Of a stretch of 64,000 nt of DNA, positions 634 through 41,760 are shown one piece after another; position 1 is the first letter of the stretch; the number at the start of each line of letters is the position of its first letter. The DNA lies in contig NZ_ML636813.1 in NCBI RefSeq assembly GCF_006476605.1, forward strand, positions 1 through 64,000, in the 5' to 3' direction. A program made the position numbers and the translations under genes. The stretch is from Brucella gallinifaecis. Its GTDB lineage: Bacteria > Pseudomonadota > Alphaproteobacteria > Rhizobiales > Rhizobiaceae. The notes under the pieces were generated by a model, which had not been told where the DNA came from, did not search any database, and saw only the letters and a program-made list of their open reading frames with translations.

Positions 634-668
634 CCTGTTAATGTGGTGGATTTGAAGTTCCCATCATT
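634..668 (+). repeat. Half-copy of the 36.5-kb stem-loop family
   Basis: The segment reads as the left arm of the third stem-loop at 36704-36777, with the shared core GTGGTGGATTTGA followed by GTTCC and ATCATT. The matching right arm is missing. It sits just after the truncated SDR gene and may mark a breakpoint. Confidence 0.5.
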
Positions 669-18369: not shown

Positions 18370-18385
18370 TGTTTCACGTGAAACA
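18370..18385. other. parS site (perfect)
   Basis: A perfect TGTTTCACGTGAAACA in the mnmE-mnmG intergenic region. Confidence 0.92.
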
Positions 18386-18414
18386 TTTCTCACAGTCATT
18401 GCCGATCCAGTGGC

Positions 18415-18430
18415 TGTTTCACGTGAATCA
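18415..18430. other. parS site (one mismatch)
   Basis: TGTTTCACGTGAATCA lies 30 bases after the previous perfect site and differs at position 14 only. Confidence 0.75.
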
Positions 18431-35828: not shown

Positions 35829-36383
35829 TTATTGCGCGTCGAGGCTTTCAACCAGAATGCTGTGATTGGTATAGATGCAGATATCTGCGGCAATCCCCAT
35901 CGCTTTGCGGGCGATTTCCTCGGCATCCAGATCTGTATCGATCAAAGCGCGTGCCGCAGCCAGTGCATAATTACCGCCCGAACCGATGGCCATAACACCA
36001 TGTTCAGGTTCAAGCACGTCGCCTGTTCCGGTCAGCGCCAATGTGACTTTGCTGTCGGCAACAAGCATCATTGCTTCGAGTTTGCGCAGATAACGGTCGG
36101 TGCGCCAGTCTTTTGCCAGTTCCACGCTGGCACGCATCAGCTGGTCAGGATATTGTTCAAGCTTGGCTTCAAGGCGTTCAAGCAGGGTGAAGGCGTCAGC
36201 AGTGGCGCCGGCAAATCCGGCAATGACATTGCCCTTGCCAATACGGCGCACTTTTCGCGCATTACCCTTCATGACGGTATTGCCGAGCGAGACCTGCCCG
36301 TCACCGGCGATAACGACCTTGTTACCCTTGCGAACGGTAACGATGGTCGTGCCGTAAATTGTTGTGGGATTATGTTCAATCAT
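35829..36383 (-). CDS. hslV: ATP-dependent protease peptidase subunit HslV
   Basis: A 184-residue N-terminal-nucleophile peptidase (heat-shock locus V). The N-terminus [14 protein letters not shown] provides the catalytic Thr after processing, and [21 protein letters not shown] and [14 protein letters not shown] are typical. It is nearly identical in wording to Brucella HslV. The 567 bases upstream, towards hisB, hold the stem-loop array. Confidence 0.97.
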
Positions 36384-36537: not shown

Positions 36538-36615
36538 CTAGTGGATTGAATTTGACATTTGAATCCCGGTTACCCTCACTGCTAGTTCAAATGTCAAATT
36601 CGTAAAATCCACTAG
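36538..36615. repeat. Long stem-loop 1 of the CTAG-ended hairpin array
   Basis: Left arm 36538-36563 and right arm 36586-36615 are complementary over 25 pairs from CTAGTGGAT inward. A 22-base loop starts TCCCGGTTAC, and GTAAA near the base of the right arm bulges out against a single T. The stem core is GAATTTGACATTTGAA. Confidence 0.85.
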
Positions 36616-36629
36616 AAACATATACTTGG

Positions 36630-36705
36630 CTAGTGGTTTTTGGATTCCAACATTTGCCCTCATGGGTGGAGTAACGGGATGCAAATGTTGGAATCAAACC
36701 ACTAG
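36630..36705. repeat. Long stem-loop 2 of the array (inverted relative to 1)
   Basis: CTAGTGGTTT and GATTCCAACATTTGC form the stem with their exact complements. Read on the minus strand, the loop starts ATCCCGTTAC as in hairpin 1 and the A-rich bulge again lies on the 3' arm. Against hairpin 1, four stem positions differ with matching changes in the other arm. Confidence 0.85.
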
Positions 36706-36777
36706 TGTGGTGGATTTGAGGTTCCTATCATTTGTCTTGCATTCCCGTTTAGGAACTTCAAGTCCGTAAACCACACT
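36704..36777. repeat. Long stem-loop 3 of the array
   Basis: AGTGTGG and GGATTTGAGGTTCCTA pair with the right arm, including two G:T or mismatch positions. The right arm has the same unpaired GTAAA as hairpin 1, opposite one T. The loop ends in ATTCCCGTT. It abuts hairpin 2 with shared bases, and its left arm resembles the segment at 634-668. Confidence 0.8.
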
Positions 36778-36792
36778 CGATTCAATAGTTTA

Positions 36793-36868
36793 CTAGTATG
36801 GCTTTAGACCCGAAATTCGCTCAGTTAATTGCAATACAGTGATACGAATTTCGGGTCTGCCATACTAG
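36793..36868. repeat. Long stem-loop 4 of the array
   Basis: CTAGTATGGC and AGACCCGAAATTCG pair perfectly with the right arm apart from a three-base TTT bulge in the left arm, in the same geometry as hairpin 2. The 24-base loop is AT-rich. It ends 82 bases before hisB. Confidence 0.82.
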
Positions 36869-36950: not shown

Positions 36951-37559
36951 ATGACGGCTGAAAGCGCCCGCAAAGCAAGTGTCGAACGTTCGACCAAGGA
37001 AACGAGCATTGCCGTTTCTGTCGATCTGGACGGCAACGGCAAGTTTGACATTACCACAGGTGTCGGCTTCTTCGATCATATGCTTGAGCAACTTTCCCGC
37101 CATTCGCTCATCGATATGCGCGTGATGGCCAAGGGCGATCTGCATATTGATGATCATCACACGGTGGAAGATACCGGTATTGCGCTTGGTCAGGCTGTTG
37201 CGAAAGCACTTGGTGAACGTCGCGGCATTGTGCGTTATGCCTCGATGGATCTGGCTATGGACGACACATTGACAGGTGCCGCAGTTGATGTATCGGGCCG
37301 GGCATTTCTGGTCTGGAATGTAAATTTCACGACTGCCAAGATTGGCACATTTGATACCGAACTGGTGCGCGAATTTTTTCAGGCTTTTGCGATCAATGCT
37401 GGTATTACGCTGCATATCAACAATCATTATGGTGCCAATAATCACCATATTGCCGAGTCGATCTTCAAGGCTGTGGCCCGGGTTCTGCGTGTGGCGCTTG
37501 AAACCGATCCGCGCCAGAAGGATGCAATTCCATCGACCAAGGGGTCACTGAAGGGATAA
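36951..37559 (+). CDS. hisB: Imidazoleglycerol-phosphate dehydratase
   Basis: A 202-residue histidine-pathway enzyme. It has the two metal-binding repeats [14 protein letters not shown] / [16 protein letters not shown] and [18 protein letters not shown]. It is the monofunctional form without the phosphatase domain, as is usual in alphaproteobacteria. The ribosome-binding site GAGGAAATG-type precedes the ATG. First gene of the cluster hisB-DUF2628-hisH-hisA-hisF-hisE. Confidence 0.97.
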
Positions 37560-41654: not shown

Positions 41655-41754
41655 TAGAGCGCGTTCCGAAAAGTGTGAAACGGTTTTCGGTCAAAGATGC
41701 GCGTTAAAACAACTATTTAGAGCGCCGATCTGATTCAATCAGATCGGCGCTCTA
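41655..41754. repeat. TAGAGCGC repeat with a near-perfect 35-base palindrome, copy A
   Basis: TAGAGCGCG - CCGAAAA - TTTTCGG - AAGATGCGCG - TAGAGCGCC is followed by a palindrome AGAGCGCCGATCTGATT...GGCGCTCT (41719-41753; 17-base arms around one central base). Diverged relatives are at 19803-19870 (first part) and 7718-7757 (palindrome). Confidence 0.7.
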
Positions 41755-41760
41755 ATGGTT

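What the first reader, a model, noticed from the sequence alone, without database searches (positions are those of the whole stretch)
36538..36868. Array of four long stem-loops with shared geometry and compensatory stem changes
In about 330 bp between hslV and hisB lie four hairpins of 74-78 bp, mostly with CTAG at the ends, with 22-24-base loops (23 in hairpin 2) and an A-rich bulge in the 3' arm. Hairpins 1, 2 and 3 are homologous, and between 1 and 2 four stem positions differ with matching changes in the opposite arm. Two are inverted relative to the others. This indicates either selection on the structure or palindromic elements that amplify. I know no named family that fits.
Basis: partly seen in the sequence, partly recalled or inferred. 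Interest (0 to 1): 0.75.

Follow-up and report, generated by a model that had tools for sequence, protein, structure and literature searches.

The report
Two mobile twin-hairpin DNA elements
The four hairpins are two neighbouring copies of a small mobile DNA element, built of two facing hairpins and found at CTAG sites in many soil-type bacteria, that carries no gene of its own; what moves it is not yet known.

Summary
The "array of four" is two twin-hairpin elements side by side: A (36538-36705) and B (36702-36868), sharing one CTAG. Each is about 168 bp: hairpin, 13-14-nt linker, reversed hairpin, CTAG (one CTCG) at the feet, and a 3-4-nt bulge on each linker-facing arm. The genome holds 27 such hairpins, ten complete pairs included. 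A model built from 21 of them matches 33 of 35 genomes of the genus; an exact pattern for one end finds the family in Brucella/Ochrobactrum, Nitrobacter, Rhizobium, Mesorhizobium, Jiella and others. In one genome six copies are 96-99% alike in unrelated flanks. Relatives show the uninterrupted site (25 alignments, 10 sites). Another genome has tandem arrays with 163-bp steps and a B inside an A at its internal CTAG. Stems covary, also among 20 divergent representatives. I read this as a non-autonomous element moved in trans by a CTAG-specific transposase. The enzyme was not found: Y1 (RAYT-type) genes are absent from 20 of 24 genus genomes tested; IS630, IS481 and IS5 ends did not match convincingly. 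It looks like a new family, REPIN/MITE-like in plan.

The parts
36538..36705 (+). Element A, complete twin-hairpin unit
   Evidence: Three further copies at 95-97% identity over the same 168 bp elsewhere in the genome
36538..36615 (+). Hairpin A1, 78 nt, bulge GTAA at 36602-36605 in the 3' arm
   Evidence: model score 82.6 bits (it is one of the 21 training sequences)
36616..36629 (.). Linker of element A, 14 nt, AT-rich
   Evidence: linkers of 12-14 nt in 107 complete elements
36630..36705 (-). Hairpin A2, 76 nt, reversed relative to A1, bulge at 36640-36642
36702..36705 (.). CTAG shared by the right end of element A and the left end of element B
   Evidence: the same kind of shared-CTAG junction in other loci
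36702..36868 (+). Element B, complete twin-hairpin unit of the second subfamily
   Evidence: Three further copies at 93-96% and two more at 78-81% in the genome
36702..36779 (+). Hairpin B1, 78 nt, bulge GTAA at 36766-36769, 3' foot CTCG
36780..36792 (.). Linker of element B, 13 nt
36793..36868 (-). Hairpin B2, 76 nt, reversed relative to B1, bulge at 36803-36805
35829..36383 (-). hslV, divergent neighbour on the left
   Evidence: NCBIfam HslV equivalog models above cut-off
36951..37559 (+). hisB, divergent neighbour on the right
   Evidence: NCBIfam HisB equivalog model above cut-off

Best explanation
The region holds two insertions of a non-autonomous transposable element. Shown by comparison: the element has exact ends, inserts at CTAG, has CTAG on both sides afterwards, can insert into a CTAG of its own kind (a nested copy), and has multiplied in several genomes. 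Shown by covariation: both stems (24-26 bp), the inward bulge and the linker length are kept while the sequence changes. Inferred: a transposase encoded elsewhere recognises the outer ends and probably the hairpins, cuts at CTAG, and inserts the element with a 4-bp (or TA) duplication. The likeliest class is a DDE transposase of the CTAG/YTAR-targeting kind (IS5 or IS630 type), because such elements occur in this group and use the same target. In the window, A and B, which belong to different subfamilies, lie side by side because an element end supplies a CTAG target.
For: Copies in unrelated flanks in the own genome and in G022, where six A copies are 96.4-98.8% identical to each other while their flanks are at most 54%. 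Uninterrupted sites in relatives for 10 of the 22 sites queried: 25 alignments, 6 with exact CTAG, 8 one base off, 11 more changed, none with the element. The window gap is uninterrupted in G011 and G005. G040: 128 match rows to one element, tandem runs with 163-bp steps, and a B inside an A at its internal CTAG. Strict plan: 48 of 49 close hairpin pairs listed for two genomes face each other at exactly 13 nt (truncated list); 106 of 107 complete elements have inward bulges. Covariation: 95.6% of 545 cells paired, 109 double changes against 36.8 in shuffles; in 20 divergent representatives 43 and 66 double changes against shuffle maxima of 18 and 24. IS5-family elements with CTAG at both ends in 9 of 11 plasmid loci.
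Against: No transposase was tied to the element. No autonomous copy was found: BLAST with a whole element to E 10 in G022, G009 and G040. IS630 and IS481 ends do not match. IS5 ends resemble the B1 end (p = 0.006) but not the A1, A2 and B2 ends. An ordinary inverted-repeat MITE needs neither paired inner arms nor CTAG at the inner feet, yet exact CTAG is about as common at the inner feet (104 and 100 of 161) as at the outer ones (113 and 108). In G040, neighbours within arrays are more alike (96.4-100%) than other pairs (mean 95.5%, maximum 97.0%), so arrays may grow by local duplication rather than by repeated insertion. The number of further pair types is not above shuffles (26 against 28.7). 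Duplication length (4 or 2 bp) is not settled. Searches used elements chosen for pairing, which inflates the paired fraction.
Confidence: 0.72

Rival explanations
1. REPIN-like movement by a single-strand enzyme. The outer CTAG is the cleavage site and the inner CTAG at the same hairpin foot pairs with it as a guide, as guide tetranucleotides do in IS200/IS605. The hairpins are then the substrate itself, which would explain why inner feet and stems are kept.
For: CTAG at all four feet in most copies; stems and bulge kept; TnpAREP needs a tetranucleotide next to a palindrome, and a bulge in one group (PMC8266576, passages); about a dozen of 41 single hairpins read by eye have no linker or partner beside them.
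Against: Pfam Y1_Tnp matches 4 of 24 genus genomes tested (3 of 15, 1 of 9), and none of G000, G007, G009, G018, G020 and G022, which carry many copies. G040, the genome with the strongest burst, was not tested for Y1_Tnp.
Confidence: 0.17
2. The covariation is not selection. Template switching between the arms during replication rewrites one arm from the other, so stems stay paired by repair in an ordinary mobile element.
For: Bulge-free, well-paired single copies exist (L121; L338 and L354); such correction of imperfect palindromes is known in bacteria (recalled).
Against: An inward bulge of 3-5 nt is kept in 106 of 107 complete elements across genera, although such rewriting should erase it.
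Confidence: 0.2
3. The hairpins are a structured RNA or a regulatory DNA site kept for the host.
For: Strong folds on both strands and a place between two divergent genes.
Against: No Rfam match at gathering score in the window; no promoter- or terminator-like site found in the gap by consensus scan; copies lie in unrelated contexts and are missing at the same site in relatives.
Confidence: 0.05

Closest known systems
REPINs / BIMEs (pairs of REP hairpins with RAYT transposases)
   Same: Two facing hairpins with a tetranucleotide at the foot, mostly intergenic, dispersed, no gene
   Different: Hairpins of 74-81 nt rather than 20-50; CTAG rather than GTAG; a CTAG gained on insertion; Y1 transposase absent from 20 of 24 genus genomes tested
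MITEs of CTAG/YTAR-targeting IS elements (IS5/IS427 group, IS630)
   Same: Short, gene-free, exact ends, CTAG target, inverted-repeat outer ends, bursts of copies
   Different: Two complete hairpins with CTAG also at the inner feet; no convincing match to the IS ends tested
Bru-RS1/Bru-RS2 of Brucella
   Same: Palindromic repeats of the same bacterial group in which a YTAR-targeting IS lands (IS711 there; an IS5-like and an IS630-like element here)
   Different: Bru-RS1 is 103 bp (PMC3163539, passage); a 3.3-Mb genome of the genus, the size of core Brucella but not identified, has no model match. Bru-RS letters were not compared
RIME1 of Rhizobium
   Same: Intergenic element with two large palindromes (recalled)
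   Different: Not compared: the sequence paper is not held; no Sinorhizobium plasmid was among the 8 records matching A+B

Membership tests
REPIN / BIME | Two REP hairpins in inverted orientation with a short spacer | tested here: met
   48 of 49 close pairs facing at 13 nt; 106 of 107 elements with inward bulges
REPIN / BIME | REP of 20-50 nt with conserved tetranucleotide, most often GTAG | tested here: not met
   74-81-nt units with CTAG
REPIN / BIME | Cognate Y1 TnpAREP (RAYT) gene in the genome | tested here: not met
   PF01797 found in 4 of 24 genus genomes and in none of six copy-rich ones; G040 not tested
MITE (general) | Short non-coding mobile unit with terminal inverted repeats and target duplication | tested here: met
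   Empty sites with one CTAG-like site, exact ends, inverted outer ends; 4 or 2 bp not resolved
MITE of IS5/IS427 group | Ends shared with an autonomous IS5-family element | tested here: inconclusive
   Profile of 15 IS5 ends: B1 p = 0.006, A1 0.16, A2 0.52, B2 0.92; over many copies 23% and 17% of outer ends pass the shuffles' 95% mark, against 2% and 11% of inner arms and 1% of loops; smallest p 0.004 of 28 comparisons
MITE of IS630 | Ends shared with an autonomous IS630 element | tested here: not met
   10 of 30 IS630 loci gave an end pair at TA sites; ends begin GAGC or AAGC; no end match longer than 11 bases
MITE of IS481 | Ends shared with an IS481 element | tested here: not met
   30 loci; one 12-base chance-level match in all
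Bru-RS1/RS2 | Sequence homology with the Brucella repeats | tested here: inconclusive
   No model match in G042 (3.3 Mb; identity not proved); Bru-RS letters not seen
RIME1 | Sequence homology with the Rhizobium element | not tested
   Paper not held

The most novel reading that the evidence does not exclude
A new class of hairpin-defined mobile DNA: the working unit is one CTAG-footed, bulged hairpin, the inner CTAG acts as a guide that pairs with the cut site, and an unknown enzyme other than a Y1 transposase recombines CTAG-footed hairpins, usually two at a time, across the Alphaproteobacteria.
Probability: 0.15. Interest if true: 0.8.

Novelty: new variant of a known kind. Interest (0 to 1): 0.52.

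Why it matters
It gives a defined, widespread and recently active family of gene-free mobile elements with strict structure and no known mover. The burst genomes, the empty sites and the 163-bp tandem arrays make the question of which enzyme moves such hairpins directly testable. The paired inner arms are hard to explain by a transposase that sees only the outer ends. The elements also bring several CTAG sites each, on which CTAG-targeting insertion sequences can land.

Tried and rejected
RAYT/IS200: PF01797 searched in 24 genus genomes; too sparse to be the mover. IS630 and IS481: ends differ. IS5: at two contig ends of G040 an IS5-like end stands at the CTAG after the linker. I first took this for a possible autonomous version, but its relatives on plasmids are plain IS5 elements, most with CTAG at both ends, and the end similarity is weak. 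A first profile test gave floor scores throughout, its own training ends included, and was useless; it was redone another way. Facing hairpins spaced widely enough to enclose a gene: none within 6 kb among 143 hairpins listed for two genomes, list truncated. For 41 of 45 hairpins unpaired in that list I read 105 bases downstream by eye: many have a decayed partner, about a dozen none. For single hairpins, one comparison showed a relative without the hairpin but no exact junction (L372/L069) and one could not be aligned (L334/L344). My note that G003, G007 and G008 hold one element in the hslV-hisB gap was wrong: they hold unrelated repeats. A tally of foot variants meant to tell a 4-bp from a 2-bp duplication suffered from register shifts and decided nothing on that. 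One search left seven minus-strand matches unread; they were read, and six more spanning loci; other spanning matches were not fetched. One search was given 80 of the 118 loci.

Full report
What is there. Between hslV and hisB, which are divergent, lie hairpins at 36538-36615, 36630-36705, 36702-36779 and 36793-36868. All eight strands fold far better than shuffles (z -3.7 to -10.2). A BLAST search of the own genome shows that the repeating unit is not one hairpin but a pair: query bases 7-176 (element A) and 172-339 (element B) match elsewhere as separate blocks of about 168 bp, with three further A copies at 95-97%, three B copies at 93-96% and two more B copies at 78-81%. A and B share the CTAG at 36702-36705. 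In each element the two hairpins face each other, with the bulged arms toward a 13-14-nt linker.

Family in the own genome. A covariance model (R1) from 21 hairpins of this genome, turned to one orientation, finds 27 distinct hairpin places at E up to 0.001: ten complete pairs (four A, six B) and seven single or decayed hairpins (each place counted once, although palindromes match on both strands; a 28th place at E 0.38 is left out; 21 of the 27 are the training sequences).

Distribution. R1 matches all 24 genus genomes of a first survey and 1 of 16 genomes of other families, weakly, and 33 of 35 genus genomes in a second; the two without a match are G042 and G049. Match rows run from 4 to 128 per positive genome and count both strands. 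The window's own species was not identified. A plasmid search with A+B finds 8 records at 60-80% identity, adding Aminobacter and Sphingobium. One contig with phage-like structural genes, judged by eye, carries two elements; two other end patterns found nothing in that collection, and a phage-record search gave only chance-level matches.

Movement. In G022 six A copies are 96.4-98.8% identical to each other, while their 200-base flanks are at most 54% identical. I joined 85-base flanks of 22 insertion sites with one CTAG and searched 24 genomes, 15 of them of the genus. I aligned 25 of the spanning matches, at 10 of the 22 sites: the site shows exact CTAG in 6, one base off in 8, and is more changed in 11; none holds the element. 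The window's own gap is uninterrupted in G011 and G005, where the site reads CCAG with a one-base gap, while G003, G007 and G008 have unrelated repeats there. G040 has 128 match rows to one element; elements stand head to tail in steps of 163 bp, in runs of two (L408, L418, L419, L420) and three (L417), and a B element sits in an A element at its internal CTAG (L411). Neighbours in these arrays are 96.4-100% identical, other pairs 95.5% on average and 97.0% at most, so some of the arrays probably grew by local duplication; the window's A and B are different subfamilies and cannot be explained so. A scan of the loci in hand for hairpins sharing a CTAG lists 11 distinct junctions: seven between whole elements, all head to tail, which may only reflect the instability of long perfect palindromes; three with a single B1 hairpin; and the nested insertion. 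Around 107 complete elements no strong base preference beyond CTAG is visible.

Structure. For 143 hairpins listed in two genomes (truncated list), 48 of 49 close pairs face each other at exactly 13 nt, the other being a same-strand call at 13 nt; 45 hairpins are unpaired in the list. Of 41 of these read by eye, many have a decayed partner and about a dozen none. Among 107 complete elements, collected by a pattern that itself requires CTAG-like feet and pairing, hairpins are 77-81 and 74-78 nt, linkers 12-14, and 106 have inward bulges of 3-5 nt. Own-genome covariation: 95.6% of 545 cells paired, 17 of 26 pairs with double changes, 109 such cells against 36.8 in shuffles; the number of further pair types, 26, is not above shuffles (28.7). 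Most of this signal lies between the four hairpin types. Within left and right hairpins of the 107 elements, several stem columns vary while staying paired in 91-100%. After reduction to 20 representatives less than 80% identical, double-changed cells are 43 (shuffle maximum 18) in the first hairpin and 66 (maximum 24) in the second; 11 of 20 and 18 of 20 stem columns show compensation. Choosing elements for pairing inflates the paired fraction and weakens these comparisons, on copies found by BLAST, is freer of this. Exact CTAG stands at the four feet in 113, 104, 100 and 108 of 161 elements, left to right, with 15-24 more at each foot hidden by register shifts.

What moves it. Y1_Tnp (RAYT, IS200) occurs in 3 of 15 and 1 of 9 genus genomes, and in none of G000, G007, G009, G018, G020 and G022; G040 was not tested. 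Ten of 30 IS630 loci gave an end pair, at TA sites, with other ends; IS481 likewise fails. In G040 an IS5-like end and an IS630-like transposase end, the latter judged by eye, abut element CTAGs at contig ends. Of 11 IS5 loci on plasmids (ten fetched, and L438), nine have CTAG at both ends, one TTAG and CTAG, one no credible end pair. A profile of 15 IS5 ends scores the B1 end above shuffles (p = 0.006) but not A1, A2 or B2; over many copies the outer ends score slightly more often above the shuffles' 95% mark (23% and 17%) than inner arms (2% and 11%) or loops (1%). This is a hint, not a match. The mover is therefore unknown. I favour a CTAG-targeting DDE transposase because of the target, the gained CTAG and the presence of such enzymes in the group, but the conserved inner arms and feet speak for recognition of whole hairpins.

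Literature seen. PMC8266576: passages on TnpAREP guide tetranucleotides and bulges. PMC3733652: passages on GTAG/CGTC REP dimers; the term CTAG does not occur. PMC2266754 and PMC3163539: passages on IS711, YTAR and Bru-RS. PMC10969869: passages; the terms for Rhizobium, Brucella and Alphaproteobacteria do not occur. PMC5082802: passages on Br-REP1/2. PMC2573895 and PMC2873474: passages citing RIME elements. PMC2267715: two passages. Others were seen as search listings only. I found no description of this family in searches; most subscription papers are not held, so this is weak evidence of absence.

Judgement. Ordinary in being a small non-autonomous element; unusual in its paired-hairpin plan, kept across many genera with no identified mover. 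I file it as a new variant of a known kind.

Noticed in passing
window 18370-18430: Two palindromes TGTTTCACGTGAAACA / TGTTTCACGTGAATCA 29 nt apart; the motif is that of ParB-binding parS sites as I recall it, which would place the window near the replication origin.
   Followed up: no
window 41717-41755: A perfect 19+1+19 palindrome, unlike the hairpin family by eye.
   Followed up: no
window 639-668: A short B1-like remnant of the same family (30 bp, 90%).
   Followed up: no
L430, L431, L432 (hslV-hisB gap of G008, G003, G007): The same gap holds a different repeat, with units reading about CATTCCAAAAAGTG and AAAATGCGC, in relatives without the hairpins.
   Followed up: no
L377 1017-1185 and 8858-9026: Two complete elements in an IMG/VR contig with phage-like structural genes by eye.
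   Followed up: partly
L121, L338, L354: Single hairpins without the bulge, as if one arm had been rewritten from the other.
   Followed up: no
L117 3757-3784 and L118 3148-3175: Two 28-base remnants in different genomes, each ending at the same place in the loop and followed by TA.
   Followed up: no
L020 1485-1527: A B1 hairpin that has lost its loop and part of its stem but keeps both CTAG feet.
   Followed up: no
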